Part shown: one piece after another, positions 30,959 to 44,431 of the stretch
Numbering within the stretch: position 1 is the stretch's first letter
Layout: each line of letters begins with the position of its first letter
DNA from: a virus
Virus record (IMG/VR): IMGVR_UViG_3300046507_000176
Coordinates: 1-47,862 of that record
Reading direction: 5' to 3' (one strand)
DNA: 47,862 bases
The notes under the pieces: generated by a model
What the model saw: the letters and a program-made list of their open reading frames with translations, nothing else
What the model was told of the DNA's origin: nothing
Databases searched by the model: none
Position numbers and translations under genes: made by a program

Positions 30959-31122
30959 AGAAGTCCGTTGGCTTTATCGTCTGGCACGTTCCTTCGGATG
31001 AGCCTTGGGATGGTATTCGGCGCTTCAAGGTCTGGTGCAGCCACAAGATGGCAATGGCCCATGGGGGAAACTGCAAGGGCTGTGAGGTCCGCGAGGTCTT
31101 CGTAGAGGTGCCGGTTGGCTAA
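30955..31122 (+). CDS. Hypothetical protein, 55 aa
   Basis: Coupled by ATGA to the previous gene and overlapping the terminase start by eight bases. It has WCSHKMAMAHGGNCKGCEV, with C, H, C, C residues that might bind zinc, and an acidic end. No family recognised. Confidence 0.55.
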   Translation: MKKSVGFIVWHVPSDEPWDGIRRFKVWCSHKMAMAHGGNCKGCEVREVFVEVPVG

Positions 31123-33082
31123 ACTTCGTGATCCCCTCAAGGAACCCACCGAAAGCCAGCGCCTAGCCACCCACGCAGCACAGCGCCTCAAGGACGAGCG
31201 CAAAGCCTCCGGTGAGCTATCTGCCAGCCAGATCGCCAACTCCTCCCTACGCCCCCCTGCTGCCCCGCCTGTGGCCGTTATGCCGGGAGCAACCCTTGAG
31301 CAGCGCATCAGGGCAGACTTCCGGGTCTTCCTCACGCTCGTCTGGCGGCATCTCCTTGGCAGCGACCCCAATCCCATCCAGCTTGACTTGGCGTATTGGC
31401 TCCAGCACGGACCAGACCGCGCCATCATCATGGCTTTCCGTGGGTTTTCCAAGTCGTGGATTACCGGGGCCTATGCCCTGTGGCGGCTTTACTGTGATCC
31501 TGATGAGAAGATCATGGTGGTGTCGGGCAGCCTCAAGCGTGCAATCGCTACGTCTACGTGGTGCTTCAGCCTTGTGATGACCATGGACCTGCTGGCCCAC
31601 ATGCGGCCTAAGGCCGATACCCGCCAGTCAGCCACAGCGTGGGACGTTGGGAATTGCATTCCGGCTCAGTCTGCGTCCTTCACTCCGTTTGGCATTGGGG
31701 GTCAGCTCGTCGGCTTCCGTGGTAGCTGCATCATCCCGGATGACGTGGAGACCCAGACGAACTCCCTCACGCTAGTCATGCGGGAGAAGATCGAGGAGGC
31801 CGTCAAGGAGTTTGAGTCCGTGCTCACTCCCGGTGGTGTCATCAAGTACCTGGGCACTCCGCATGACGTGGACAGCCTGTACATGAAGCTCCTCCGCTTG
31901 AAGAACGCAGCCGGGGCACCTGTCTATCAGGCTCGCATCTGGCCCGCCCTCTATCCGAGCACGGAGGAAATCAAAGGGTACGGCAAGCTGCTGGCTCCGT
32001 ATATCCTTGCGCAACTCAAGAAGCTCGGGCCTACAGCCGTGGGCCACAGCACCATGCCCATGCGCTTCCCCGATGAGGACCTTGAGACCCGTAGGGCGGC
32101 TATGGGTAACTCCGAGTTCCGCCTACAGTTCATGTTGGACCTTGCGGGCTCGCTTATCGATAAGTTCCCGCTCAAGCTCAAAGACCTCATCGTCATGGAG
32201 CTGGCTGCCAATCAGGCCCCTGAGGAAATCGTATGGGGTCCCAATCCGGGTAACCGTGAGCAGGACCTTCCGCTCATGGGCTTTGATGGTGACTACCTCC
32301 ACCGGCCTGCCCACGCAGGGACACACTACAGCCCGTACAGCCGCAAGATTGGCTATCTGGATGGATCGGGCAGGGGCACAGACGAAACCTCTCTGAGCGT
32401 CCTTGGTGAGCTGTTTGGCCGTGCTTTCTGGCTGGACCTCTATGCCACCCAAGACGGCTACGGCCCGGCCACGCTGGAAGCTATTTCCAATATGTGTGTC
32501 CGCTGGGATGTCTCCACGCTCTACATCGAGGCCAACTTCGGGGACGGCATGATGACTGCCCTGATGCGGCCTGAGCTCACCAAGGCGTGGGACCGTGAGG
32601 CTGCCCGCCGTAAGAATGCCGGTCTGTCTCCCCTTGAGCGCACCGGTACGCTTATCGAAGAGGTGAAGTCTGGGGCCGTCCAGAAGGAGAAGCGCATTCT
32701 GTCGGTCCTAGAGCCCGTCACACAGCAGCACAGGCTTGTGGTTAACCGGGAGGTCTTCCTCTACGACCGGCGCTCTATGGAGGCTCTGGATGGCGAAGAT
32801 ACACGGCACCGCTATGCCTTCAACTATCAGTACACGCACCTCACCCGCGAGAAGGATTGCCTCGGGCATGATGACCGTTTGGAGAGCCTTGCCGGTGGCT
32901 TGGCGATGCTGGCGGCTGAGCTCGGGGTTGACCCTGAAGGAATAGCCCTCAGAGCCAAGCTGGAGCGCAATGACTCGCTTCTGGCCGAGCTGGAGGAGGA
33001 TGCATGGGACCAAGTGGGTAGGGGCTCAGGGGGCCGCTATAAGGACACCAGAGTGCAAGCAGCGAGGATACAGACGAGATGA
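31115..33082 (+). CDS. terL: Terminase large subunit (T7 gp19-like)
   Basis: A 655-residue packaging motor (T7 gp19 is 586). The ATPase domain has AFRGFSKSW in the Walker A position (K113; the usual glycine before Lys is Ser), CIIPDDVE as Walker B, and YLGTPHDVDSLY as coupling motif. The nuclease domain has YLDGSGRGTDETSLSVL, TLYIEANFGDGM and CLGHDDRLESLAGGLAM. TTG 31115 follows GAGGTG and gives a 55-residue extension relative to T7; ATG at 31280 is an alternative start. The stop overlaps the next ATG. Confidence 0.95.
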   Translation: MAKLRDPLKEPTESQRLATHAAQRLKDERKASGELSASQIANSSLRPPAAPPVAVMPGATLEQRIRADFRVFLTLVWRHLLGSDPNPIQLDLAYWLQHGPDRAIIMAFRGFSKSWITGAYALWRLYCDPDEKIMVVSGSLKRAIATSTWCFSLVMTMDLLAHMRPKADTRQSATAWDVGNCIPAQSASFTPFGIGGQLVGFRGSCIIPDDVETQTNSLTLVMREKIEEAVKEFESVLTPGGVIKYLGTPHDVDSLYMKLLRLKNAAGAPVYQARIWPALYPSTEEIKGYGKLLAPYILAQLKKLGPTAVGHSTMPMRFPDEDLETRRAAMGNSEFRLQFMLDLAGSLIDKFPLKLKDLIVMELAANQAPEEIVWGPNPGNREQDLPLMGFDGDYLHRPAHAGTHYSPYSRKIGYLDGSGRGTDETSLSVLGELFGRAFWLDLYATQDGYGPATLEAISNMCVRWDVSTLYIEANFGDGMMTALMRPELTKAWDREAARRKNAGLSPLERTGTLIEEVKSGAVQKEKRILSVLEPVTQQHRLVVNREVFLYDRRSMEALDGEDTRHRYAFNYQYTHLTREKDCLGHDDRLESLAGGLAMLAAELGVDPEGIALRAKLERNDSLLAELEEDAWDQVGRGSGGRYKDTRVQAARIQTR

Positions 33083-33375
33083 TAACAGACATCAAGATTG
33101 CTACCCACTTGACGGCCTTGCGCCTGTTCGGGTGGTTTCTCCTCATCGTCCTTGGCTCTGTGGTGGCCGCAGGCGCGTTTCTTGGCGCAGCTATCCTAGT
33201 GGCCATTCTCCACGAGAATACGCCTGTGTGGTCTCACTGGGCCACGCTAGGGGCATGCCTTACGGCTTTCGTCTACTGGTGTTGCTGGGAGCTTGCCCGA
33301 GAGCAGGAACAGGTGGCCGAGATTGAGGCCAAGCGTAAAGCATTTCTGGAAGGTGCCTTCGATGATCCTCACTGA
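33079..33375 (+). CDS. Membrane protein, 98 aa, two segments
   Basis: Follows TerL with ATGA overlap. Two membrane segments (FGWFLLIVLGSVVAAGAFLGAAILVAIL and LGACLTAFVYWCCWELA) and a charged C-terminal helix. T7 has spanin genes inside and before gp19 in this area. It could be another lysis-related or superinfection protein. Not identified. Confidence 0.65.
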   Translation: MITDIKIATHLTALRLFGWFLLIVLGSVVAAGAFLGAAILVAILHENTPVWSHWATLGACLTAFVYWCCWELAREQEQVAEIEAKRKAFLEGAFDDPH

Positions 33376-33568
33376 ACAAGAGGCTAAGACCAAGCTGTGC
33401 CCCTTCATGTCTTGCCGTAATTCCCAGTCCAAGGGAGCTGACGGCGATGGCGTTGTGTTCTGCCAAGCGTCCGACTGTATGGCGTGGCGCTGGGGCGACA
33501 ACTCGGGGCCTGAGGACTTAGCATGGCGGCAGGACAAGCCGCTGCCCAAAGGCTTCTGTGGGGCCTAG
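33362..33568 (+). CDS. Small zinc-ribbon-like protein, 68 aa
   Basis: ATG 33362 overlaps the previous gene by 14 bases. KLCPFMSCRN and VFCQASDCMAWRWG hold four cysteines in CxxxxC pairs typical of a zinc ribbon, and KGFCGA ends the protein. Similar small Cys-rich proteins occur near the end of T7-like genomes; function unknown. It is the last gene before the terminator and the long non-coding region. Confidence 0.65.
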   Translation: MILTEQEAKTKLCPFMSCRNSQSKGADGDGVVFCQASDCMAWRWGDNSGPEDLAWRQDKPLPKGFCGA

Positions 33569-33577
33569 CTTTCAGGT

Positions 33578-33597
33578 AGTCGCTCTTCGGGGCGGCT
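33578..33597 (+). terminator. Hairpin terminator with UUCG loop after late genes
   Basis: AGTCGCTC pairs with GGGCGGCT around TTCG (8 pairs, two G-U). A pyrimidine-rich stretch (ATCTGTCTCTCTT) follows in place of a pure T-run. It lies nine bases after the last late gene. Confidence 0.65.
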
Positions 33598-33630
33598 ATC
33601 TGTCTCTCTTCGCTTTTGCTCTCAGTTCTA

Positions 33631-33650
33631 ATTCCCTTCGTATAGCAGAG
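33631..33650 (+). promoter_or_regulatory. ATTCCCTTC-type motif, copy A (putative phage promoter)
   Basis: ATTCCCTTCG followed by TATAGCAGAG. The TATAG part resembles the start region of T7-family promoters (CTATAGGGAGA). A near-identical copy lies 97 bases downstream. In T7 such promoters near the right end serve late transcription and replication. That this phage's polymerase uses it is inference. Confidence 0.5.
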
Positions 33651-33666
33651 GGCGGCATACGGTTGG

Positions 33667-33680
33667 CTATATGTATATTC
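33667..33680 (+). repeat. 14-bp repeat CTATATGTATATTC, copy 1
   Basis: Exact match to 33775-33788. Each copy lies 36 or 47 bases after an ATTCCCTTC-type motif, so a larger unit seems duplicated with divergence. AT-rich; could be a melting or host -10-like element. Confidence 0.7.
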
Positions 33681-33727
33681 CCTAGACCACCATTGTCTCC
33701 TTGAGGGAAGCTTTAGGCTAAATCCTT

Positions 33728-33747
33728 ATTCCCTTCCTATAGCAGAG
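33728..33747 (+). promoter_or_regulatory. ATTCCCTTC-type motif, copy B (putative phage promoter)
   Basis: ATTCCCTTCC followed by TATAGCAGAG. It differs from copy A at one base in 20. CCTATAGCAGAGA is close to the T7 promoter start. Both copies point towards the early region. Confidence 0.55.
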
Positions 33748-33774
33748 AACTCAGAGCCCACCCCAGGGCTTTAC

Positions 33775-33788
33775 CTATATGTATATTC
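33775..33788 (+). repeat. 14-bp repeat CTATATGTATATTC, copy 2
   Basis: Exact match to 33667-33680, 108 bases apart. See the first copy. Confidence 0.7.
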
Positions 33789-33916
33789 AATAGGTATTAG
33801 TGCTCAAAGTGACCTACTTCATGCCACCCAGCATGCCTAGGCACATAGCCACACCACATGATAACCCCATGGCTACAGCATTGATGAGGGGACATAGCAA
33901 CACAGAGGACATAGAG

Positions 33917-34009
33917 ATGGACCTACAGGCATTCACAATGCTGCCGAGCGTAATGCAGTACCTTTGGCTCAGCATAAAGCTATGGGCCTTTGGTTCCCGA
34001 GGCTGGTAG
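33917..34009 (+). CDS. Possible tiny ORF, 30 aa
   Basis: ATG 33917 has GAGGA seven bases upstream and opens a 30-codon frame with a hydrophobic, Trp-rich product (YLWLSIKLWAFG). It is the only frame with a good ribosome site in the long gap. It may be a chance feature. Confidence 0.2.
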   Translation: MDLQAFTMLPSVMQYLWLSIKLWAFGSRGW

Positions 34010-34179
34010 GGGTCACACATCTCAGAGGTAACCACGTGGCAGCGGCGACAGGCATTTCCCCCCGTGGGGCTCATCGCGCCCCCATGCGCACAGAATGGCT
34101 CCCAGGCGTGCCCCAGCGCCATGCGGAATGGCTCCCGAGGGCATGCGCGATGCTAACCCGTTGTTTCCATTGAGGTGAA

Positions 34180-34199
34180 ATGTCCTTAAGGGAGGACAT
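34180..34199. repeat. Perfect inverted repeat, 7-bp stem
   Basis: ATGTCCT, six-base spacer TAAGGG, AGGACAT. It has no T-run after it. It could be a processing hairpin or a protein-binding site near the genome end. Confidence 0.6.
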
Positions 34200-34333
34200 A
34201 TTGCCCTCTTAGTGCCTACCTGGGTGCTTGGCTAGATGCTGGGCATGATGCGGCAATGAGCTTTATACCACATCGATATCTACCAAAATGGTGACTTTGA
34301 CCGCAGGTATATGTGGGGTCTCAGGCAGCCCTA

Positions 34334-34388
34334 CCGCATGCCATCCATCACGCTTGTCATGTGGCTATGCATGTAGCTTGGCATGCGG
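34334..34388. repeat. 10-bp inverted repeat enclosing 35 bases
   Basis: CCGCATGCCA (34334-34343) and TGGCATGCGG (34379-34388) are perfect inverted repeats. The loop holds ATGCAT and more CATG-type palindromes. A DNA cruciform, RNA hairpin or protein-binding site is possible; its position between genome arms makes a packaging or replication role worth testing. Confidence 0.6.
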
Positions 34389-34416
34389 CTACCTGCAAAA
34401 AGTTCACTAGGGGGTG

Positions 34417-34446
34417 TTGACAGCTTTGAGGAGGAGGCGCATAGGT
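34417..34446 (+). promoter_or_regulatory. Possible host promoter for early genes
   Basis: TTGACA at 34417-34422 matches the -35 consensus fully; 17 bases on is CATAGG (3 of 6 matches to -10). It lies about 60 bases before the ribosome site of the first clear early gene, where a T7-like phage needs a host-read promoter. The weak -10 keeps confidence low. Confidence 0.4.
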
Positions 34447-34507
34447 AGGCACATGGCAAGGCACATGGCTAGCCACACAGCAACGAACACCTAAGGAGAC
34501 ATGCACA

Positions 34508-34798
34508 ATGATTACCGTAAGCAAAGCACTCACCTACATCAACGATGTCCACTGTGGTTACCTCGCGTTTGCCTGTGAGGACGGCCTAGTGGTTCGCTCT
34601 GAGATGGTTGACACCTGCAAGGACGTGGGGGAGCTGCCAGAGTACGCTAGGTACGCACTCATTGGCAGCAAGATGGATGGCAAGTTGGTGGACTGCAAGT
34701 ATTATGATGCTGACCGCGTAGAGGAGGACTTTGAGGTGTTCCCCATTGTTGACGGCATGGTGAGCTTGAAGGCCATCCGCGACCACATGGGATACTGA
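34508..34798 (+). CDS. First early gene, 96 aa, unknown
   Basis: Starts after a strong AAGGAGAC ribosome site. The product is acidic (many Asp/Glu) and mixed alpha/beta: TYINDVHCGYLAFACEDGLVV, ARYALIGSKMDGKLVDCKYYD, FEVFPIVDGMVSLKAIRDHMG. The first genes of T7-like phages often disarm host defences or enzymes, sometimes as DNA mimics; acidity fits but proves nothing. No family recognised. Confidence 0.7.
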   Translation: MITVSKALTYINDVHCGYLAFACEDGLVVRSEMVDTCKDVGELPEYARYALIGSKMDGKLVDCKYYDADRVEEDFEVFPIVDGMVSLKAIRDHMGY

Positions 34799-34875
34799 GG
34801 GCTTAGCTTTTAGGTGACTTCAAGCACAGACCGCTTGGAGCATCCTAATGGCTAACCATAGGAGCACCCAACGCC

Positions 34876-34962
34876 ATGACGCCTATCACTTGGTTTTTCA
34901 TCACGGTCAACACCATGATTATCTGTGTGTCTGCCGTCACTATCACCTACTTGAGCCACTGA
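34876..34962 (+). CDS. Early membrane peptide, 28 aa
   Basis: MTPITWFFITVNTMIICVSA and a short end: one membrane segment spanning almost the whole peptide. AGGAG lies ten bases upstream. Function unknown. Confidence 0.5.
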   Translation: MTPITWFFITVNTMIICVSAVTITYLSH

Positions 34963-34972
34963 GGAAAGCACC

Positions 34973-35209
34973 ATGTTTACGCATGAGGACAACCGGTATC
35001 GTTACGCGGTGAATGTGAAGACATACAAGGACACTGCGGCATCTTCATGGACACAACACGCCACGCTAGGTGGGGCAATACGCTCCGCTAGGTCGCTTAT
35101 CGGTGGCCGCAAGTACCGCATAAAGGACATGGAGACCTGCCTAATCTGGGACAAGCACACGAACGCCTTGCTTAGCGTGAATGCTGCCGAAAGGCTCCTC
35201 AACGCCTAG
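34973..35209 (+). CDS. Early protein, 78 aa, unknown
   Basis: GAGGAAAG ribosome site. Basic, soluble product with YRYAVNVKTYKDTAASSW and LGGAIRSARSLIGGRKYRIKD. Its stop lies at the left edge of the 50-bp hairpin repeat. No family recognised. Confidence 0.65.
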   Translation: MFTHEDNRYRYAVNVKTYKDTAASSWTQHATLGGAIRSARSLIGGRKYRIKDMETCLIWDKHTNALLSVNAAERLLNA

Positions 35210-35255
35210 AGCTACCCTTAGGCCTACCTCACCGTAGGCCATTGGCTAACCCTAG
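35206..35255 (+). repeat. 50-bp hairpin repeat, copy 1
   Basis: CTAGAGCTA then CCCTTAGGCCTACC..., differing at one base from 35587-35636. Inside, GGCCTAC and GTAGGCC form a perfect seven-pair stem with loop CTCACC. It sits in the untranslated gap before the 101-residue early gene. There is no T-run, so an RNA-processing site, such as the RNase III sites between T7 early genes, is a better guess than a terminator. Confidence 0.85.
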
Positions 35256-35277
35256 AGCAACTGAGGAGAATAGCACC

Positions 35278-35583
35278 ATGGCACGCGTACACTCTCGCAA
35301 AGACTTCGAAGCGATCATCATCAAGGGCAGCCCCAGGTTTGCCCGTTGCGCCTATGCATGCGTGATCACTCAAAGCACAGCCTACCCGGATGAGCGTGCT
35401 CTTTACCATGTGGAGACATTCTATGGTGAGGATGGTCGCAAGGTACGCTCTGAGGCACAGCGCTATGGCCGTGAGATAACATCCGGCAAGCGTGGTGTCT
35501 GCGGCTACCGGAGCCAATACATACCGTCTAACTTTCCGCGTGCTGGCTTGCCCAAGCCCGAGGATCAAATCGAAGTTAGATAG
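35278..35583 (+). CDS. Early protein, 101 aa, unknown
   Basis: TGAGGAGA ribosome site nine bases before ATG 35278. Basic N terminus (ARVHSRKDFEAIIIKGSPRF), then CAYACVITQ, LYHVETFYGEDGRKVRSEAQ, and a basic Arg/Pro-rich end. It is bracketed by two copies of a 50-bp repeat, as if the gene plus one repeat had been acquired or duplicated as a unit. No family recognised. Confidence 0.65.
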   Translation: MARVHSRKDFEAIIIKGSPRFARCAYACVITQSTAYPDERALYHVETFYGEDGRKVRSEAQRYGREITSGKRGVCGYRSQYIPSNFPRAGLPKPEDQIEVR

Positions 35584-35586
35584 CCA

Positions 35587-35636
35587 CTAGAGCTGCCCTT
35601 AGGCCTACCTCACCGTAGGCCATTGGCTAACCCTAG
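35587..35636 (+). repeat. 50-bp hairpin repeat, copy 2
   Basis: 49 of 50 bases match 35206-35255, including the whole GGCCTAC/GTAGGCC stem. It starts three bases after the 101-residue gene's stop and lies in an 136-base gap before the next gene. A shorter relative of its right half (TGGCTAACCATAGG) is at 34849. Confidence 0.85.
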
Positions 35637-35719
35637 GACATGGTTAGGTGAATGTAGCCACACGCTGGGCATGGTGCTTAGCGCGTATGGCGAAGCTTTG
35701 ACGGGAGCTTAGAAGCACA

Positions 35720-35989
35720 ATGACACAGGCAATCACCACGAAATACTCTGGGCCTAGCAGTACGCAGCCGGGACGCATCATCGCCAAGTGCAACTCAAAG
35801 CGCATGGTGGTCTACTACGATCACGGCTTTGACACGGAGCGCAATCACCACAGAGCCGCCATGAAGCTCGCCACAGAGATGGGCTGGAAAGGCTCTTGGT
35901 GCGTGGGGGTGCTGCCGGATGGTGTCACCAACGTCTACGTATCGAACGGGCATAATGCAGGCTTTGCGCCCTTCGTTGTGGAGGTATGA
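35720..35989 (+). CDS. Early protein, 89 aa, unknown
   Basis: ATG 35720 after GGGAGC/AGAAGC. Product: PGRIIAKCNSKRMVVYYDHG, then RAAMKLATEMGWKGSWCVGV and FAPFVVEV. The pattern A..LA..MGW.G....G.L..G...V is seen in small proteins of many phages, but its function is not known to me. Confidence 0.7.
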   Translation: MTQAITTKYSGPSSTQPGRIIAKCNSKRMVVYYDHGFDTERNHHRAAMKLATEMGWKGSWCVGVLPDGVTNVYVSNGHNAGFAPFVVEV

Positions 35990-35993
35990 GGCC

Positions 35994-36206
35994 ATGGCGA
36001 AATTCAAAGTTGGCGATAGGGTTACCTTCACTAACGACTATGGATTGGCCTTCAAGGGCAAGACGATAGTTGGCTTGTCGCAATGGACGTGGGAAGGTGC
36101 AGACCCACAGCAGCGTTACTTCTATGCCCCCAATGATGCACCTTGGTATAGCGTGCCTGAGTCTAGCCTCACGCTTGAGCAAGAGGACGATGCGCCCAAT
36201 GCCTAG
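35994..36206 (+). CDS. Early protein, 70 aa, SH3/KOW-like
   Basis: Follows five bases after the previous stop with GGAGG inside that gene. MAKFKVGDRVTFTNDYGLAF suggests a small SH3/KOW-type barrel; the end is acidic (LEQEDDAPNA). Function unknown. Confidence 0.65.
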   Translation: MAKFKVGDRVTFTNDYGLAFKGKTIVGLSQWTWEGADPQQRYFYAPNDAPWYSVPESSLTLEQEDDAPNA

Positions 36207-36396
36207 CAAGACGCACCCCTACATGGTCACCCTTCCACCAAGCGATTTCGAACACCAAACGGAGGTCACTTTGCGCCAGGAATTACGCTGTTATCATGGT
36301 GCTTGCCAACGCGAAGCAGCACTCATATTCTCGCTTCTAGTCCTCTTTCTGGGGCTTTTCGGCTGCATTTTGATCCTTATGGCCGCTCTGGAGTAG
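36199..36396 (+). CDS. Small membrane protein, 65 aa
   Basis: ATG 36199 overlaps the previous gene and has GAGGA eleven bases upstream; ATG 36190 is an alternative. A polar first half is followed by one membrane segment (LIFSLLVLFLGLFGCILILM) near the end. Last gene before a terminator. Confidence 0.55.
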   Translation: MPSKTHPYMVTLPPSDFEHQTEVTLRQELRCYHGACQREAALIFSLLVLFLGLFGCILILMAALE

Positions 36397-36430
36397 GTCC
36401 ATACGAAAATATTTTCAGGCATCACAAAGA

Positions 36431-36460
36431 GCCCTCTGGACACCCTCCAGGGGGCCTTTT
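36431..36460 (+). terminator. Rho-independent terminator
   Basis: GCCCTCTGG pairs with CCAGGGGGC over nine pairs, loop ACACCCT, followed by CTTTT. It ends the first early transcription unit. Confidence 0.85.
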
Positions 36461-36467
36461 GCTGCTT

Positions 36468-36480
36468 ACGAAGGGAATAG
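36468..36480 (-). promoter_or_regulatory. ATTCCCTTCGT motif on the minus strand, copy D
   Basis: Read on the minus strand: CTATTCCCTTCGTAAGCAG. It equals copy A except for one missing base before AGCAG. It lies just after a terminator. The missing base would disturb a promoter, so it could be a relic or a site for another protein. Confidence 0.4.
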
Positions 36481-36544
36481 CAAGATGCGGGGCAAAACGC
36501 ACCCTTTGAGCCACCCCAGCGGCTACGGCCCATTAAAATAGTTC

Positions 36545-36575
36545 TTGACGTGACCACGTGAAGTATGACCACATG
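36545..36575 (+). promoter_or_regulatory. Possible promoter with tandem 10-bp operator-like repeat
   Basis: TTGACG at 36545 is a -35-like hexamer. Overlapping it downstream are TGACCACGTG (36551-36560) and TGACCACATG (36566-36575), a direct repeat with one mismatch and a 15-base period. This gap (36397-36683) between a terminator and the next gene should hold that gene's promoter. A -10 element is not obvious. Confidence 0.35.
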
Positions 36576-36683
36576 CCCTCACCACGGACCCCTTAAGCTC
36601 AACGCATCTCATGTTGCCTAGGGTGGTCTGGTGGGTGAGCATGCACCATCGCAAACCATGGACAACGTGAAGGACACACACCC

Positions 36684-37289
36684 ATGACCAATACCAAGAG
36701 CACACTTACGGCAGGCGTAACGGAACACCTCAGCGATACACCCGACATGATCGGCTTCACCGGCAAGACCATCGTTATCACCAAGCAGGGCGAAGAGGGC
36801 GGCTTTGAGGTTGATGCCTTCAGCGGCGTGGTGCTTCGCCACAGCAAGAACGCAGAGACCGGCCAGTGGGAGGGCATTGAGCTACCTGCATGGGCTGAAG
36901 GCCTCACCAATGCGCTGCTGACCGAACGCCACATCTTCTACACGTCTCGCCTCGGTGGTCTCTACACGGACGCCATGAAGCAGCCCGAAGCGCTGTGCTA
37001 CGAGGACCTCTCCTGGGTCCACGTCACGCCGCTGGAAGAGCCCAGGCAGAACGAAGAGACCGGCCAGATGGAGCACGTGGAGCTTTCCGAGGTGGAAGCC
37101 GACCACGAGTTCCGCATGGGCATCATCGCAGAGGTCACCGGCATTGCTGGCGATGTGGACCTCGCTGAGGGCACATTCGGCAAGGATGCGCTTACGGTCG
37201 CCATCGAGCGCGACAATATGCGAACCGAAGAGGAGCTCGCTTCCATGGAGCAAGCCTCGCGGGAGGGCTTCAAGGCTGTCAACGGGTAA
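36684..37289 (+). CDS. Acidic early protein, 201 aa, unknown
   Basis: A strongly acidic protein with optimal-looking C-ending codons, its own upstream gap and its own terminator, so it is probably made in quantity. NAETGQWEGIELPAW and NEETGQMEHVELSEV are an internal near-repeat. The C-terminal 50 residues are helical and Glu-rich. High acidity and isolated strong expression recall T7 early proteins that bind host proteins or mimic DNA, but no family is recognised. Confidence 0.75.
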   Translation: MTNTKSTLTAGVTEHLSDTPDMIGFTGKTIVITKQGEEGGFEVDAFSGVVLRHSKNAETGQWEGIELPAWAEGLTNALLTERHIFYTSRLGGLYTDAMKQPEALCYEDLSWVHVTPLEEPRQNEETGQMEHVELSEVEADHEFRMGIIAEVTGIAGDVDLAEGTFGKDALTVAIERDNMRTEEELASMEQASREGFKAVNG

Positions 37290-37337
37290 TCAACTGCCCG
37301 CTGAGCTCCACAGCGACTTGAAGTAACCGAGAGGGCT

Positions 37338-37362
37338 GGGCCAGTGATGGTCTGGCCCTTTT
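37338..37362 (+). terminator. Rho-independent terminator
   Basis: GGGCCAG pairs with CTGGCCC, loop TGATGGT, followed by TTTT. It follows the 201-residue acidic early gene. Confidence 0.85.
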
Positions 37363-37408
37363 GGCTTTCCTAAGGGTAGGAGCCCATTGTGGGCCTGAGG
37401 AGAGTACC

Positions 37409-37756
37409 ATGTTGCCTTTTGACGAGAATGACCCATTGGACATGGACGGCATATCATTAGAGGCCATCAAGGCCAGCCTAGAGCGCCGGGGGCTGCTATT
37501 CCCGAAGCATGAAGCATCCTTGACGCTAACGCACAATGACCACAAGAGCGTTTACGAGACGGTGGCCGAGCGGGTGGCAGACGATCCGTACTATAGCGAT
37601 GCCGTTCACTGGGTGAGCGAGGAGCAGCGCCAGAAGGCCATAGCCTCCAACGAGATGTGGACCCTTCACTGGTATCCTCGCACTCCGGTGGGCTTTTGCG
37701 TTCTCCATGCTTGTGACCTGGACGTGCTGCTCAAAGCCGCCAACTCGCCCGATTAA
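37409..37756 (+). CDS. Early protein, 115 aa, unknown
   Basis: TGAGGAGAG lies just before ATG 37409. MDGISLEAIKASLERRGLLF is helical; HNDHKSVYETVAERVADDPY and WVSEEQRQKAIASNEMWTLHWYPRTPVGF follow. The second half (Y-P-TPVGFCVLHACDLDVLL) may form a small alpha/beta fold. No family recognised. Confidence 0.65.
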   Translation: MLPFDENDPLDMDGISLEAIKASLERRGLLFPKHEASLTLTHNDHKSVYETVAERVADDPYYSDAVHWVSEEQRQKAIASNEMWTLHWYPRTPVGFCVLHACDLDVLLKAANSPD

Positions 37757-37787
37757 TGCACTCTGCCATCACCGGAGGCAATCACTA

Positions 37788-38675
37788 ATGCAGACTGAGA
37801 CCCTAGACCAAGCCTTAAGCCGCATCTGGCAAAACGAATGGCGGCACATGCGGAGCGGCCCCACCTTGAGAAGCCAAGCGGAGATAGCCGTACGGGCCAT
37901 ATCGGTGGTCCATGAGTTTGGCGTATTGCCTCACGTAGTGGGTGGAGAGCGGTACATCAACAGGGAGCTCAAGGTTAGCGCTGTGGAGCCTCACCACATC
38001 CAGCAAGCTACGGCCTATTGGTATTCCGAAGGTGTTAGCCCAGCCACGATCACCAAGCGCCTCAACTGCTTGTCTAAGCTGGGGGTCAACGTTGATGGCT
38101 GCCGCGTGAAGGTCCCCAAGCAGCTCAAGTGGCACCTGAAGGAGAGTGACAAGCCAAAGGTGCTGGCATGGTGCCGTGAGCAATTCGAGAAGCATCGAGT
38201 GCCTTGGCTTGACATCCTAGCGGACTACATTGAATGGACCACAATCACCGGCCTCCGCATTGAGGAGAGCTTGTGGCTAGACCTGGGGAACGACTTTTCG
38301 CCAGACTATTCGGCTGTCTCAGTGCCCGGTTTGAAGACGGCCACCAGTCAAGCCACTTTGCCGCTTGGTGCTGAGGCATCTGGAGTAGCTTTCCGCCGTA
38401 GCTTCGCGTCTACCAGCTTGATGTTCCCCATTCCGTATAAAGACCTACAGGAAGCGTGGGAGCTCGTCCGTGAGCACTTCGGCTGGCAGCATGACCCTAC
38501 AGCCACCCTCAAGGCCCTCCGACGCTCAGCAGCCCGCTATCTCCACGTGGACTGCGGAATGCCGCTCCATATGGTCCAGCAATACCTCAGGCACGAGAGC
38601 ATGGACACCACGCTGGAATACTTGCGGCTGGCTGGCGGGTATGGCACTGAGGAGATGAGGCGGTATCTGAGATGA
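37788..38675 (+). CDS. Tyrosine recombinase, divergent
   Basis: A 295-residue protein. The catalytic domain has Arg157 in TITGLRIEESLWLDL, then a C-terminal box with R245 in LKALRRSAARYL, H269 in YLRHESMDTT and the nucleophile Y278 in LEYLRL. The first His of the usual HxxR is Lys242. The N-terminal 110 residues resemble a SAM-like core-binding domain. It could be an integrase, a dimer resolvase or a regulator of DNA form. It belongs to the plus-strand early operon and is unlike the minus-strand integrase in size and sequence. Confidence 0.85.
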   Translation: MQTETLDQALSRIWQNEWRHMRSGPTLRSQAEIAVRAISVVHEFGVLPHVVGGERYINRELKVSAVEPHHIQQATAYWYSEGVSPATITKRLNCLSKLGVNVDGCRVKVPKQLKWHLKESDKPKVLAWCREQFEKHRVPWLDILADYIEWTTITGLRIEESLWLDLGNDFSPDYSAVSVPGLKTATSQATLPLGAEASGVAFRRSFASTSLMFPIPYKDLQEAWELVREHFGWQHDPTATLKALRRSAARYLHVDCGMPLHMVQQYLRHESMDTTLEYLRLAGGYGTEEMRRYLR

Positions 38676-38945
38676 GAAAGGCCGCTTGGTTCGCCCTAGG
38701 GCTTCTCGTGGCTGGGATGTTCTTCCAGCTCGGCATCTTGGCTGTGGTCCACCTGCTTGGGCCTTAGGTGTCATCCCACCAACAAGACACTTGGGGCTGT
38801 GTAACCTGCACAGCTCCTCCATGGCCTCAGCTCGGCCAGCATCGCGCTTATCCCTTTCGCTGGCCGAGTGGCTCAACCAGCCCCAGAACAGCGCCAGCAC
38901 TATGGCAGCCATAAAGAATTCACTTAGGCCCAGGTTGCGTAGCAT
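38526..38945 (-). CDS. Possible minus-strand membrane protein after integrase
   Basis: ATG 38945 overlaps the integrase end by 26 bases, with GAAGAAGG just before it on that strand. The first 60 residues look real: membrane segment LSEFFMAAIVLALFWGWLS, a charged helix (SERDKRDAGRAEAMEELC) and a short Cys end. The later part is antisense to the recombinase 3' end and low quality, so if the gene is real its true 3' end may be the whole frame only by chance. Confidence 0.35.
   Translation of the reverse strand: MLRNLGLSEFFMAAIVLALFWGWLSHSASERDKRDAGRAEAMEELCRLHSPKCLVGGMTPKAQAGGPQPRCRAGRTSQPREALGRTKRPFSSQIPPHLLSAIPASQPQVFQRGVHALVPEVLLDHMERHSAVHVEIAGC
38672..38767 (+). CDS. Small membrane peptide, 31 aa
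   Basis: Coupled by ATGA to the recombinase. MRKAAWFALGLLVAGMFFQL and LAVVHLLG: one membrane segment after a basic start. Function unknown. Confidence 0.45.
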   Translation: MRKAAWFALGLLVAGMFFQLGILAVVHLLGP

Positions 38946-40590
38946 CCTTCTTCGTTCCCAGATCGTACCTCGGGAACTTGGTGATAGCATCTTGCTTGGC
39001 TTTTAGCGAGACCCTGCCGTACTTTCCACCCTCAGTGCTTGCAGAATGCCCGCAGATTGCATCCAAAACCTTCTCCTGTATGTCCACATCTCGGCCCATG
39101 GTCTTGAAGGTGTGCCTCCAGCCGTGGTTAGGCGCAACATTGGGGTCTGAGACCACCTTGCGGATATGCCTTCTGAGGTTTTCCCGCTGCTGGTTCGCCA
39201 TGGTGGCCGTGAGGGTCTGGCCCTTAGGCACAGCCACAAAGAGATAGCCAGCTTTGGCACTCTTCACGAACGTCTCAAGGCCCAGCGCAACGAGATGCTC
39301 ATGGATAGGCACCACGCGGAGCTCTTTGCCCTTCACAGTGCCAGCCTCGGGTGTGATCCTTAGGACGCCATCTGTGATATCCTGCTTGCGAAGCTGAATG
39401 ATTTCCGTAACGCGAGCCCCGGTGTAGGCACAGAGCCACGGGACCCAGTAGAATGCCTCATCGATCTTCCGCCAGTCGCTCGTAGCCAGCAGGATAGCCT
39501 TGACCTCATCCGCCGTGAAATCCTTATCGCGTAGCTTCTTGTCCTTGCCTACCATGACCACAATGCCATCCGTAGGGTTGGATGCCAGACGCTTGTCCGT
39601 CACAGCCCACTCAAAGATGGTCTTCAAGCCAGCCAGCTCGGGATTGCGAAATGCCTTGGGCTTGAGGAGCTTGCCTGTGTGTGGATTGGGCGTGGTCAAG
39701 CGATGGTCCTTGAAGCGCAGCATATCGTTGTGCGTAATGCGGGCCGCATCGTCATGCCCCATGAAGGCACCAAGCCGGTTGATGGCCCGACGATAGGACA
39801 GGTAGGTATTCTCGGCCAGCCCAGCCGCCTTGGCAATCGACCACCAGCTTTCCAAGAGCCCCTTGAGGCTCACCTGGGCAACCGTAGGCTGGAACGTCTG
39901 GGTCTCCCACTTCGGGAACATCTGGAGGCGCTCATCTGGCCGGTAGTCTCCAAGGGCGTAGCGTGCTGATTGCTGGAGGGCTTCACCTTTGAGCCGCCTC
40001 AATGCCTCAGCAAGACGCTCACGCGAGGCCACAGTTACGCGAGGAACGCCGTGCTGGGCCAAAAGGGATGAGACCACTGCGTCGTAGCTCTTCGCTTCCA
40101 GAGAGCCGTCTGTGTGGGCTGGCATATCGTCTGGCCTGATGCCTGCGACCACAAGCGACACAGCGTTCAACATTTCGGCCTCCTCGATGGCTCCAAGGGG
40201 AGTTAGAACCGGCTCAGGATCAAACAGATAGTTGAGCGTATTGTCTGGCGTGGAGTTGGCAGACCCAGCGTAGAACACCCCGGCCAGCGCTGTGATTTGC
40301 TTGTGGGTGAGCTCAAGGGGCTGCTCAGTGCGGAGGCCGTGAAACCAGCGCTCAATGCAGTCTAGGGCAACCGCATGTCTCGCCTTGGCTTCCCGTGGGT
40401 CTCGTGTCCGCAAGGAAAACCTAATGCTCTTCGTTTTGGGTTTGATCTTGATGACAATGCCGTCCTCGCCAAGCGGAATGGGCAGCGAAGAGCCAGCAAC
40501 ACGCTCCTTCAGATCGTCGGGAATGCGCTTCAAAAACTGTAGGGTTTCAACCCCATCTCTTCGGCTTGGTCTAGCTATTCGCAGTCCCAT
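38920..40590 (-). CDS. int: Phage integrase, tyrosine recombinase
   Basis: A 556-residue integrase on the opposite strand from nearly all other genes. The catalytic residues are Arg in AYTGARVTEIIQL, Lys in GTVKGKELR, H489/R492 in NHGWRHTF, H515 in CGHSAS and nucleophile Y524. The N-terminal 350 residues include a core-binding domain (AENTYLSYRRAINRLGAFMG). The ATG at 40590 has GAGGGGG five bases upstream on its strand. The gene implies site-specific integration in a T7-like phage; relatives with integrases exist among some marine T7-like phages. No repressor gene is recognised beside it. Confidence 0.95.
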   Translation of the reverse strand: MGLRIARPSRRDGVETLQFLKRIPDDLKERVAGSSLPIPLGEDGIVIKIKPKTKSIRFSLRTRDPREAKARHAVALDCIERWFHGLRTEQPLELTHKQITALAGVFYAGSANSTPDNTLNYLFDPEPVLTPLGAIEEAEMLNAVSLVVAGIRPDDMPAHTDGSLEAKSYDAVVSSLLAQHGVPRVTVASRERLAEALRRLKGEALQQSARYALGDYRPDERLQMFPKWETQTFQPTVAQVSLKGLLESWWSIAKAAGLAENTYLSYRRAINRLGAFMGHDDAARITHNDMLRFKDHRLTTPNPHTGKLLKPKAFRNPELAGLKTIFEWAVTDKRLASNPTDGIVVMVGKDKKLRDKDFTADEVKAILLATSDWRKIDEAFYWVPWLCAYTGARVTEIIQLRKQDITDGVLRITPEAGTVKGKELRVVPIHEHLVALGLETFVKSAKAGYLFVAVPKGQTLTATMANQQRENLRRHIRKVVSDPNVAPNHGWRHTFKTMGRDVDIQEKVLDAICGHSASTEGGKYGRVSLKAKQDAITKFPRYDLGTKKDATQPGPK

Positions 40591-41031
40591 TTTGACCCCC
40601 TCAAGTCACACAGTCATGTTACACAGTCGAAGGTTTCTAAGCATTTGCAAATACGTTCTTATATGCTACATAGGCGATAGCGCAGCAATAGGGAAGTAAC
40701 GGGAAGTTATATCTGCTGGCCACGTCCCGCTTGATTTCATTACGAAATTTTGGGGCATTTGCCAAGCATGTAACACACTCCTGCTACACACTTTTTTGCC
40801 CTCAGTTCTGCGACTGGACGAGTAGCTAGACGCCTAGCAAGGCACATAGGAAGGAATACGGCTGTGCATAGGGCTACACTTGATAAGATACCCCTAGTAA
40901 AGACCCTCTTTTATGTTGACGCTGAGTTAGGCGCTATGGTACGTACGGAGATAAGGCGAGACCCTAATACAGGGCTTACCTTTACCAGCAAGACCATAGT
41001 GAATTCACAGAAACCATAAGGAGTGTAGACT
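40591..41031. other. AT-richer intergenic region with attP-like repeats
   Basis: 441 bases between the integrase start and the next plus-strand gene, no credible ORF. Repeats: ACACAGTC at 40608 and 40621, within CATGTTACACAGTC (40615) and its relative CATGTAACACACTC (40767); GCATTTGCAAA (40641) and GCATTTGCCAA (40755); ATTTGCAAAT (40643-40652) is a perfect palindrome. This arrangement could be integrase arm and core sites, making it the best attP candidate. TTGACG at 40916 is a -35-like hexamer without a clear -10. A sequence like TTTTGCYCTCAGTTCT occurs here (40794) and at 33615. Confidence 0.5.
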
Positions 41032-41478
41032 ATGACTACCCCGAGTACATCACCGAAGGCCCCCCAAACGCCCTCTCAGTCTGCAAAGACCGAGTGGGAA
41101 TTCACCGCAGACTTTGACGTTGGGCTGCCTCCCCCTGAGGCTCCCCGTGTGACCCGCTCCACGGAACTGCCCTTCGCCGCTAAGTTCTTCAGCCCCGCCA
41201 TGCAGGCAGCGCTTGAGGGGAAGCAGCCCCACAAGTTCATACCTAAGGCGTTCTTCACAGGGCGTGCCGATAAGCCCGAAAAGGTGGACGGTTCGTACAT
41301 GAAGACGAAGGTGCGGGAGGCATTCAACAAATGGCTAAAACTACAGGCTCAGCCGGTTCGTGAAGCCCTCGCAATCCTCCAAGTCGAGCGTAAAGGCGAC
41401 GAAGGGGACTACAAGGAGCCCGGCGTTTCGGTCTGGATTGTTACCGCCAAGCCGAAAAAGGCACCACCCGCAGTATGA
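41032..41478 (+). CDS. Early protein before RNA polymerase, 148 aa, unknown
   Basis: AAGGAG lies nine bases before ATG 41032. Pro/Ser/Thr-rich N terminus, then WEFTADFDVGLPPPEAPRVT, LPFAAKFFSPAMQAALEG, and a basic C-terminal half ending in Lys/Pro. It could bind nucleic acid or a polymerase. It is followed by a terminator and then the RNA polymerase gene. Confidence 0.65.
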   Translation: MTTPSTSPKAPQTPSQSAKTEWEFTADFDVGLPPPEAPRVTRSTELPFAAKFFSPAMQAALEGKQPHKFIPKAFFTGRADKPEKVDGSYMKTKVREAFNKWLKLQAQPVREALAILQVERKGDEGDYKEPGVSVWIVTAKPKKAPPAV

Positions 41479-41495
41479 TATGATGATTGAGAAAG

Positions 41496-41532
41496 TGGCC
41501 GTAAGATTAACAAATTGCGGCCATTTGCTTTT
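41496..41532 (+). terminator. Rho-independent terminator
   Basis: TGGCCG pairs with CGGCCA across a 16-base AT-rich loop, followed by TTTGCTTTT. The remaining gap to the polymerase (41533-41692) holds no gene; TTTCCCTTATAAGG near 41650 weakly resembles the ATTCCCTTC motif. Confidence 0.7.
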
Positions 41533-41692
41533 CCCCACTACCAGTGGCCTGCTGTAAGGTGACCCCACTGTTAAATCATGTGTATTGCAACGTTCGGAAA
41601 TCCTAAATAGGAAAATAAGCATAAGGTCGAGCACATAAGCTTTCCCTTATAAGGCGAGTTTTGAGTAATGCCAATCAAGACTAGGGGGTAAA

Positions 41693-44431
41693 ATGGACAC
41701 GTTGGAGTTACAGGAGGACCCCTTCATCGGGGAAGACGGTCCTCAGGAAACCATTGAGATAATCGATGATTGGAAGCACGGAGACGACCCGCAGGCCCAT
41801 CCCCTGTGGGACGAGCAATTGAAGCTAGAATATGGGATGATGCGGTCTGGGGCCAACAAGCTGCGAGACCAAGTGATTACCGCCACGGAAGACCGGCAGC
41901 TCACCCAGGTGGCAGTAGTTCGGGGTCTCATGGTGGACTGGCTGCCGGGTGTCGCCCAGACACTCAAGGACTGGTGCAGGGTGTGGGACAATCAGCGGGG
42001 CGTAAAGCCGCGCATCTTGCCCCTCATGAAGACCATAGACATGCATATGGCCGCGCTTGTGGGTCTCCGCGAGATCATGGACCGCATCGGCCAGAGCAAG
42101 AACACAGTGCTCAACATCGCGATGGAGATAGGCCGCACCATTGAGTATGAGCAGCGCGTTCGTGCCTGGGAGAAGGGCTCCGAAAAGGAGCGGGCTCTGT
42201 GGTTCAGCGAGCAGAAATCCATGCAGCGTGACAAGGTGACGACTGGACACCGCCGCCTCCGCAGCATCAACCGTTTCAACCATCACCTTAAGGAAGGCAA
42301 CTTCGATAGCCTCACGTGGGACAATTGGTCCACCGATACGCTATTCCGTGTAGGCTGGGAGGTCATGGATGCCGTTGTGCGTCACACCGGATGGTTTGAG
42401 GTGCAGGATGACCCGGAGCACGTCTACAGGAATGGCGGGAAGAACAGCCCTAAGCTGCTGCTTGTCGTCAAGAGTGGCCTCACCGACTGGCTATCCAAAG
42501 CGCTGGACTACGCTGAGATTAACCAGCCGGATTTCAGGCCCACCATTATGCCACCCAAACCGTGGACCAGCAGCCGTGACGGCGGATACTGGACGGCCTA
42601 CGTTAAGCCACCCCGCTTGGTTCGCTTCAAAGCATCTCAAGAGAACCAAAAGGATAACGCAGCAGATGAGTACGACGCTCTGGATATGCCACATGTGTAT
42701 GCTGCGGTCAATATGCTACAGGATACTGCCTATAGGGTTAACACAAGGGTACTAGATGTTTTCTCCCGAGTGTGGACGGAACTAAGGTGGTCAAGCGATA
42801 AGGCATACTTACCGGAGCTCAGGGACCGCGACTTGCCACCCACCACGGCCCGCATGCAGCTCCACCGTGAGCTCAACCGTGGGAGGCGAGGGGAAGACAG
42901 GACGCCGCCCGATGAGGAGACCGCTCAGGAAATCTTTGAGTGGAAAAAGAAGGCATCACCCATCCACGCCTTTAACGGGAAGCGGGCCGCACGCACCAAG
43001 GCTTGCTCGGCTACCCTGAGGATCGCCACTGAGTTTGCCAAGTATGACGCCATCTACTTCCCCCACATGCTTGACTTCCGGGGACGTATCTATCCGATAC
43101 CAGCCTACTTGCAGCCTCAGGGTAACGACTTGGCGCGTGGCCTTCTGACCTACGCCACCGAGGCACCCATCACGCATGCAAACGGCGGTATCAAGTGGCT
43201 GGCTATATGCTTGGCTTCCAACTGGGGTCATGACAAGAAGTCATTCACCGAGCGTGGGCAATGGGTCTATGACAATGAGGAGCTCATCCTCTCCATAGCC
43301 GAAGACCCTTATGCCAACGATGAGTGGTTCCGTGCAGACAAGCCTTGGCAAACCCTTGCGGCCATCTTTGAGTGGGCAGAGTACCGCAAGGCTGAGGCCC
43401 GAGGGGAAACCTTCATGAGCTCATTGCCGGGCATGGTGGACGGTACATGCAACGGCATCCAGCACCTCAGCGCCATCATCAGGGACGAAGTGGCGGGCGA
43501 ATACGTCAACCTCATCCCAGGTGAGAAGCCTCGGGACATCTACAAGTTTGTCGCTGAGGACCTTCAGGCCAAGCTTGAAAGGATCGAACGGGCAGGCGGC
43601 TCACAGGGAGAGCTTGCCAAGTGGTGGCTGGAGCTCTGCGACCACGATCTACCCCGCACGTTGACCAAACGCCAAGTCATGGTGCTGCCTTATGGAGGCA
43701 CGAAGGACAGCTTCTTTTCGTACACCCGCAAGTGGCTGGATGATAAGGACCCGGTGACCGAACGGCTGGACATTGAGGCTGCCAAAGCGAGAACCGAGAA
43801 GATCACCTTCTTGACCAACCTGATGTGGGATAGCGTCAAGGAGAACGTGAGGGCAGCCGAAGAGGTCATGACGTGGCTTCAGGATTGCGCAAGGGTGGCC
43901 GCTCAGGAAAACCAGCCAATCTACTGGGTCACTCCGAGCGGCTTCACCGTCCGTCACTTCTATGGTGTGCTCAAGGATAAGCAGGTTGATCTAAAGCTTG
44001 ATGGTCAACGCTGCCAAGTTCGGCTGGGCGAGAGAACCGCCACGCTGAGCGTAAAGGAACAGCTTCAAGGCATCTCCCCGAACTTCATCCACTCGCTGGA
44101 CGCAAGCTGCCTTGTGGATTGTCTTAATGCCTGCCGTGATGTCGGCATTACGAGCTTTACTTCCGTGCATGACGCCTACGGCACGCATATGGCCAACATG
44201 GATGCGCTCTCTGCGCTGCTCCGTGAGGCTTTCGTGAAGACCCATGAGGTGGACGTTCTCGGCCTTTTCCGTCAAGCCTGCATCGAAGTGTTACTTCCTG
44301 TGCTCATCCTGCGTGACGGTCTAGACCCGCTTGAGGCGTTCGAGAAGGCTGATGGCATGATGCCCAAGCCTTTGGCCCACGGAAAGCTGGACCTTAAAGC
44401 CGTTCTCCGCTCGGAATATTTCTTCGCCTAG
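41693..44431 (+). CDS. Single-subunit DNA-directed RNA polymerase (T7 gp1-like)
   Basis: A 912-residue polymerase (T7: 883) that transcribes the phage middle and late genes. Catalytic motifs: DGTCNGIQHLSA (D583), KRQVMVLPYGG (Y667) and SVHDAYGTH (D827), matching T7 D537, Y639 and D812. FRGRIYPIPAYLQPQGNDLARGLL is the palm/thumb signature. The C terminus ends ...EYFFA, like T7 FAFA. GGGGG at 41683 is the ribosome site. It lies after the integrase region and before the middle genes, as in T7. Confidence 0.98.
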   Translation: MDTLELQEDPFIGEDGPQETIEIIDDWKHGDDPQAHPLWDEQLKLEYGMMRSGANKLRDQVITATEDRQLTQVAVVRGLMVDWLPGVAQTLKDWCRVWDNQRGVKPRILPLMKTIDMHMAALVGLREIMDRIGQSKNTVLNIAMEIGRTIEYEQRVRAWEKGSEKERALWFSEQKSMQRDKVTTGHRRLRSINRFNHHLKEGNFDSLTWDNWSTDTLFRVGWEVMDAVVRHTGWFEVQDDPEHVYRNGGKNSPKLLLVVKSGLTDWLSKALDYAEINQPDFRPTIMPPKPWTSSRDGGYWTAYVKPPRLVRFKASQENQKDNAADEYDALDMPHVYAAVNMLQDTAYRVNTRVLDVFSRVWTELRWSSDKAYLPELRDRDLPPTTARMQLHRELNRGRRGEDRTPPDEETAQEIFEWKKKASPIHAFNGKRAARTKACSATLRIATEFAKYDAIYFPHMLDFRGRIYPIPAYLQPQGNDLARGLLTYATEAPITHANGGIKWLAICLASNWGHDKKSFTERGQWVYDNEELILSIAEDPYANDEWFRADKPWQTLAAIFEWAEYRKAEARGETFMSSLPGMVDGTCNGIQHLSAIIRDEVAGEYVNLIPGEKPRDIYKFVAEDLQAKLERIERAGGSQGELAKWWLELCDHDLPRTLTKRQVMVLPYGGTKDSFFSYTRKWLDDKDPVTERLDIEAAKARTEKITFLTNLMWDSVKENVRAAEEVMTWLQDCARVAAQENQPIYWVTPSGFTVRHFYGVLKDKQVDLKLDGQRCQVRLGERTATLSVKEQLQGISPNFIHSLDASCLVDCLNACRDVGITSFTSVHDAYGTHMANMDALSALLREAFVKTHEVDVLGLFRQACIEVLLPVLILRDGLDPLEAFEKADGMMPKPLAHGKLDLKAVLRSEYFFA

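What the first reader, a model, noticed from the sequence alone, without database searches (positions are those of the whole stretch)
35206..35636. 50-bp hairpin repeat flanks a single early gene
Two copies, 49 of 50 bases identical, bracket the 101-residue early gene. Each holds a perfect GGCCTAC/GTAGGCC stem. A shorter relative of the right half is at 34849, before another early gene. Near-identity in a non-coding sequence suggests recent duplication or selection. Possibilities: RNA-processing sites between early messages, a recombination cassette allowing early genes to be swapped, or target sites of the small tyrosine recombinase.
Basis: seen in the sequence. Interest (0 to 1): 0.7.

Follow-up and report, generated by a model that had tools for sequence, protein, structure and literature searches.

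The report
Repeated RNA-type hairpins between phage early genes
A T7-like phage carries near-identical hairpins between its early genes, and related phages keep the same hairpin shape with different letters, so these are most likely RNA-cutting signals at the joints where early genes come and go, although no cutting has been shown.

Summary
The repeat is real: 49 of 50 bases, 35206-35255 and 35587-35636, with homology ending at the hairpin edges. The "shorter relative" is the right arm of a complete third hairpin (34803-34855). The window is a T7-like phage genome (own RNA polymerase, two tyrosine recombinases) whose relatives include prophages of Aminobacter and Methylobacterium. In relatives, early genes are either packed tightly or separated by imperfect hairpins. 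The window's two hairpin classes recur there with the same ladder of short helices, mismatches and internal loop, but with compensating base-pair changes (0 of 500 shuffles match). A covariance model from four phages found four more such hairpins in a fifth, all between early genes. The design resembles T7 RNase III sites, so I read them as RNase III-type processing signals of the early message. Against: no cleavage data, and A and B fold more stably on the antisense strand, unlike T7 sites. The unit [hairpin A + gene without relatives] is missing in the closest syntenic relative, which fits cassette gain at hairpin joints. Recombinase targets are not supported. New variant of a known kind.

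The parts
34508..34798 (+). early gene of family F1 (96 aa), just before hairpin C
   Evidence: gene; homologs in G079, G2, G3, L023
34876..34962 (+). 28-aa ORF after hairpin C
   Evidence: gene
34973..35209 (+). 78-aa early ORF; its stop codon overlaps the first bases of hairpin A
35206..35255 (+). hairpin A (class a), copy 1 of the 50-nt repeat
35278..35583 (+). 101-aa early gene between A and B, no relatives found
35587..35636 (+). hairpin B (class a), copy 2 of the 50-nt repeat, in front of the F2 gene
35720..35989 (+). early gene of family F2 (89 aa; phrog_3199, unknown function); preceded by a hairpin in the window, G079 and L023
36431..36455 (+). terminator-like site after the early gene cluster
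   Evidence: consensus match only
41693..44431 (+). single-subunit RNA polymerase gene downstream of the early region

Best explanation
The hairpins are intercistronic RNA processing signals of the early polycistronic message, working like the RNase III sites of phage T7. The early genes would be read as one message; each such junction folds into an irregular hairpin of about two helical turns (11-12 position lower stem with one or two mismatches, an internal loop, a top stem of about 7-8 bp). Host RNase III would cut at or near the internal loop, leaving shorter mRNAs with folded ends before the ribosome site of the next gene. Shown here: the repeat, the junction positions, covariation, recurring mismatches, recurrence in relatives, likeness to T7 sites. 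Inferred: transcription as one message, RNase III as the enzyme, the effect on translation or stability. The 98% identity of A and B is read as recent copying when the unit [hairpin A + 101-aa gene] was gained beside the older hairpin in front of the F2 gene.
For: Compensating changes: class b 11 of 20 pairs changed on both sides, 88.8% of cells paired against 70.9% in shuffles, 0 of 500; class a 92.9% against 70.0%, 0 of 500, and 85.8% against 56.4%, 0 of 2000, in a hand alignment of nine. Model R2 found four plus-strand sites between early genes of L076, not used to build it, among 25 loci. Hairpins seen by eye in 25 of 27 early gaps of nine phages. No T-run; none of nine terminator-like sites is at A, B or C. 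T7 RNase III gaps refold to a similar ladder and are partial repeats of each other. T7 early mRNA is cut at five sites by RNase III (passage, PMC4858673); rhizobial RNase III cuts T7 R1.1 (passages, PMC6121014). The only A/B difference is A-U to G.U on the plus strand.
Against: No cleavage or RNA-end data. Strand test: plus more stable in only 11 of 24 trimmed hairpins, and all nine class a hairpins, A and B included, fold better antisense, unlike T7 (5 of 5 plus). Folding energy alone is modest: 14 of 27 gaps at p<=0.05 against late segments, hairpin A's gap 0.227. R2 does not recover G3a, G3b or L023 at E<=10. The S. meliloti enzyme prefers longer duplexes and cuts R1.1 partly at an unusual place. 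The match of R2 to T7 is not significant (E 2.2).
Confidence: 0.58

Rival explanations
1. Structured leaders or spacers without cleavage: the hairpins protect mRNA ends or control access to the ribosome site of the next gene.
For: They lie shortly before ribosome sites; L020 copies carry a second small covarying hairpin with the ribosome site in its loop; repeats in L020 and L076 run on to the start codon.
Against: Window hairpin B lies about 80 bases before its gene's start codon; the repeat in the window stops at the hairpin edge; the lower-stem, internal-loop, top-stem plan recurs, which simple roadblocks do not need.
Confidence: 0.2
2. Recombination joints at the DNA level: the hairpins serve mainly as homology (or folded single-strand DNA) at which early-gene cassettes are exchanged, as proposed for T4 PeSLs.
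For: Different genes between hairpins at the same places in window, G079 and L023; near-identical copies within G0 and G4; class a folds better antisense; two tyrosine recombinases.
Against: Pairing, not letters, is kept between phages, so homology between phages is poor; no exchange seen; recurring mismatches fit an RNA ladder; L076, L020 and distant repeats favour the transcribed strand.
Confidence: 0.12
3. Target sites of a phage tyrosine recombinase (attachment-like or integron attC-like).
For: Inverted arms around a 6-nt spacer; a 322-aa recombinase gene 2 kb away.
Against: Top-stem letters are free; G3 and L023 regions hold hairpins without a match to the 322-aa recombinase; tRNA-Leu beside the integrases in three prophages; the integron-integrase model scores 12.8 bits against a cut-off of 265 for the 556-aa protein and is not listed for the 322-aa one.
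Confidence: 0.04
4. Chance repeat or assembly artefact.
For: Metagenomic record; the copies are 98% alike.
Against: E 1.7e-18; independent pairs in relatives; covariation.
Confidence: 0.03

Closest known systems
RNase III processing sites of the phage T7 early region (R1.1 named; other site names recalled)
   Same: Irregular hairpins between early genes; lower stem of 11-12 positions with mismatches, internal loop, 9-10 bp top stem; partial repeats of one another within the genome.
   Different: Other letters; internal loop mostly symmetric (3x3 or 2x2) where T7 has 2x3 in these folds and 4/5 nt; C.C and A.C mismatches; nearly identical copies; no cleavage evidence; class a does not favour the transcribed strand.
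PeSLs (promoter early stem-loops) of T4-like phages (known from a passage of PMC4503421; the two original papers are not held)
   Same: Repeated stem-loops between early genes of one phage, linked to shuffling of those genes.
   Different: No promoter was found in the copied unit; PeSLs are titled promoter-terminator motifs, and these hairpins lack a T-run.
Integron attC sites
   Same: Imperfect palindromes between small genes, structure kept more than sequence (recalled).
   Different: No protein passes the integron-integrase cut-off among the two recombinases; symmetric 1x1 mismatches; one to several genes between hairpins.

Membership tests
T7-type RNase III processing signal | Intercistronic position in the early region of a T7-like phage | tested here: met
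   Window A, B, C and relatives' hairpins lie between early genes
T7-type RNase III processing signal | About two turns of irregular helix with an internal loop | tested here: met
   T7 refolded for comparison
T7-type RNase III processing signal | Structure conserved by compensating changes | tested here: met
T7-type RNase III processing signal | More stable on the transcribed strand, as T7 sites are | tested here: inconclusive
   11 of 24 here, class a 0 of 9; L076 4 of 4 and distant repeats 8 of 8; T7 5 of 5
T7-type RNase III processing signal | Cleavage by RNase III | not testable with these tools
   Needs an enzyme assay or RNA ends
T4 PeSL | Promoter within the repeated unit | tested here: not met
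   No promoter-like match in A, B or C in the sigma-70 consensus scan; the scan does not cover other promoter types
T4 PeSL | Repeated between early genes with gene shuffling around it | tested here: inconclusive
   Repeated; gene content differs between hairpins in relatives, but no exchange was traced
Integron attC site | Integron integrase present | tested here: not met
   12.8 bits against cut-off 265 for the 556-aa recombinase; not listed for the 322-aa one
Intrinsic terminator | G+C-rich stem followed by a run of T | tested here: not met
   None of nine terminator-like sites in 33000-42000 is at A, B or C

The most novel reading that the evidence does not exclude
The hairpin itself is a mobile junction element: it is copied from palindrome edge to palindrome edge into new early-gene junctions, so that each newly gained gene arrives with its own processing site, and copies within a phage stay alike by repeated copying. 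T7-like phages would then own a hairpin-bounded gene-cassette system, a PeSL-like device built from processing sites.
Probability: 0.15. Interest if true: 0.8.

Novelty: new variant of a known kind. Interest (0 to 1): 0.5.

Why it matters
Phage early regions turn over fast and are full of genes without relatives; how new genes enter without wrecking expression is open. A hairpin at the joints that is conserved in structure, with close copies inside one phage and compensating changes between phages, makes this testable: it gives a search model for such joints and a prediction of where early messages are cut. It also extends T7-type message processing, if confirmed, to an uncultured temperate-looking T7-like lineage with prophage relatives in Aminobacter and Methylobacterium.

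Tried and rejected
Exact top hairpin in IMG/VR: 0 matches, the window's own record being left out. Right-half pattern in IMG/VR: 25 loci, of which 1 (L045, the G2 record) is a hairpin of this kind by its fold; the other 24 read as chance. Hairpin B as a host repeat: 0 of 297 family genomes; model R2: 0 of 61, with strict filters; neither search had a positive control. Relatives of the 101-aa gene: none in viral contigs or in five records. Rfam: none at gathering score; two chance-level snoRNA matches at E<=10. MAFFT misaligned class a when G3a/b were included, so a hand alignment and a smaller MAFFT set (A8) were used. Model R1 found nothing at E<=1 in 25 further loci and beyond its own sites and their antisense only weak matches. 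Strand test: null overall and against for class a. tRNA-Leu attachment-site match in the window: none. Literature: searches listed no title on these hairpins; only PMC4503421, PMC6121014, PMC4858673 and PMC8708148 were opened, for passages, and most subscription papers are not held.

Full report
What was checked. The two 50-base copies are as described: 35206-35255 and 35587-35636, 49 of 50 identical, with a perfect 7-bp stem and 6-nt loop in the middle of a longer imperfect palindrome. Homology ends at the palindrome edges; 20-base flanks agree at 5 and 6 positions. The 'shorter relative' at 34849 is the 3' arm of a whole third hairpin, 34803-34855.

Setting. The window is a virus record with 125-nt identical ends. 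It has T7-like primase-helicase, DNA polymerase, RNA polymerase, head-tail connector, nozzle, tail fibre and terminase genes and two tyrosine recombinases (37707-38672 plus, 38920-40590 minus). The hairpins lie between the terminase gene (31115-33082) and the RNA polymerase gene (41693-44431), where T7-like phages carry early genes (established knowledge; T7 map).

Relatives have hairpins at early junctions too. Genes were called by one script in nine early regions: window (G0), G079, G2, G3, G4, L020, L022, L023, L024; more distant regions fetched (G146, G020, G390, G187, G242) were left out of this count. Of 61 early junctions 27 have gaps of 30 nt or more. By eye 25 of these 27 hold a hairpin; the two without are L022 2241-2310 and L023 2414-2556, and some of the 25 are weak (G2 6166-6294, G079 1791-1892). 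By dinucleotide shuffles 18 of 27 gaps fold at p<=0.05; against same-length late segments 14 of 27 do. Early gaps fold better than 27 late gaps (p 3e-4), but late gaps are shorter. So energy alone is a weak argument, and hairpin A's own gap is not remarkable (0.227).

Repeats in relatives. Hairpins that are near-identical or similar within one phage also occur in G2 (two families), G3, G4 (55 nt, 100%), L020 (five copies) and L076 (four), and in the more distant loci L003, L104, L111 and L143. Most of the 31 upstream regions scanned gave no such pair, and L023, L024 and G079 gave none. Sequences differ between phages.

Structure is kept while letters change. Class a: hairpins of G0, G2, G3, L022 and L023 fold to one ladder: about 4 bp, mismatch, 3 bp, mismatch, 1-3 bp, internal loop, then 7 or more bp (the window's own copies deviate in the lower stem). 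In the hand alignment of nine hairpins 85.8% of cells pair against 56.4% in shuffles, none of 2000 reaching it; 16 of 18 columns have changes on both sides; the inner mismatch column is never paired (C.C six, A.C two, U.U one). That alignment was fitted to structure. A MAFFT alignment of six hairpins gives 92.9% against 70.0%, 0 of 500. Class b (window C, two of G2, one of L022): the motif GGTGAC..GCATCC occurs four times on the plus strand of the nine regions (96.7 kb), 0.17 expected, none on the minus strand; 11 of 20 pairs show changes on both sides, 0 of 500. L020's five copies show further compensating changes, also in a small hairpin that carries the ribosome site in its loop. Model R2, built from class a of four phages, was run on 25 further loci (463 kb): of five matches at E<=1, four are plus-strand sites in the early region of L076 (E 4.6e-8, 6e-5, 7e-4, 8e-4) and the fifth is the antisense of the first. 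Adding the two best (the threshold left the other two out) keeps the signal (0 of 500 for four measures, 1 of 500 for one); that alignment is fitted to the model. R2 does not recover G3a, G3b or L023 at E<=10, and gives weak matches elsewhere, best L003 on the minus strand, E 0.01.

Strand. An RNA element rich in G.U pairs should fold better on the transcribed strand. T7's five gaps do. Here plus wins in 11 of 24 trimmed hairpins; all nine class a hairpins are better antisense, because C.C and A.C mismatches become G.G and G.U there. L076 (4 of 4; a fifth, doubtful segment goes the other way) and the distant repeats (8 of 8) favour plus. The single A/B difference is A-U to G.U on plus, which would be a mismatch on minus. 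I take the recurring mismatches as selected on the plus strand, but this is inference and the main weakness.

Likeness to T7. Refolding the T7 record, gap 1/1.1 gives 6 bp, mismatch, 3 bp, mismatch, 1 bp, 2x3 loop, 10 bp, and the gap before 0.3 gives 3, mismatch, 5, mismatch, 1, 2x3 loop, 9; the other three gaps fold less alike. T7 sites are partial repeats of each other (80% over 45 nt; 90% over 29 nt). [quoted passage not shown] The latter adds that the rhizobial enzyme needs longer duplexes than the E. coli one for optimal activity.

Gene content around the hairpins. F2 is preceded by a hairpin in the window, G079 and L023, three of three phages where F2 was found, although the G079 one does not stand out from shuffles (p 0.775). 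F1 is next to a hairpin in the window, G079, G2 and G3, and in L076 by my reading of its sequence (not aligned), but not in L023. Between F1 and F2 the window has 28-, 78- and 101-aa genes and hairpins C and A; G079 has F4 and a 32-aa gene and one hairpin. So [hairpin A + 101-aa gene] looks like a gain in the window's line; the 101-aa protein has no relative. Since relatives build the same ladder from other letters, the identity of A and B points to recent copying or conversion, not to selection on letters. This is inference.

Recombinase idea. Top-stem letters change freely if pairing is kept, which is unlike a sequence-specific DNA site. The G3 and L023 regions searched hold hairpins but no match to the 322-aa recombinase. 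In prophages G079, G146 and G020 a tRNA-Leu gene lies beside the integrase genes, as is common for attachment sites; the window shows no such match.

Verdict. Intercistronic processing-type hairpins, RNase III the likely enzyme, in a T7-like lineage that carries integrase genes; the window's pair made by recent copying; junctions where early genes turn over. New variant of a known kind; cleavage untested.

Noticed in passing
window 33800-33818; also L008/L012, L011, L015, L016, L020, L023, L024 soon after the terminase gene: A conserved motif GTGCTYAAAGTGACCTACT; in several relatives a second, inverted copy lies about 350-470 bases on. Only one match in the window at up to 3 mismatches (0.02 expected). 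Possibly phage promoter or genome-end signal.
   Followed up: partly
window 37707-38672 (+) and 38920-40590 (-): Two different tyrosine recombinase genes side by side on opposite strands; G079 has both, other relatives one of them.
   Followed up: partly
L020:11868-14028: Five junctions carry, besides the main hairpin, a small covarying hairpin with the ribosome site in its loop.
   Followed up: partly
L111 near 1077 and 3221, L143 near 3332 and 5649, L003 near 7114 and 7637: More distant T7-like records also have repeated hairpins with a mid-stem internal loop (3x3, or 2x3 in L003) upstream of the RNA polymerase gene.
   Followed up: partly
L058 near 903: TTGACA, 18-base spacer, CTATAT about 70 bases before the F1 gene: a likely host-type early promoter; no such match in the window at that threshold.
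   Followed up: no
window 33628-33747: Direct repeat CTAATTCCCTTCGTATAGCAGAG (91% over 23 nt), 97 bases apart, in the long gap after the terminase cluster.
   Followed up: no
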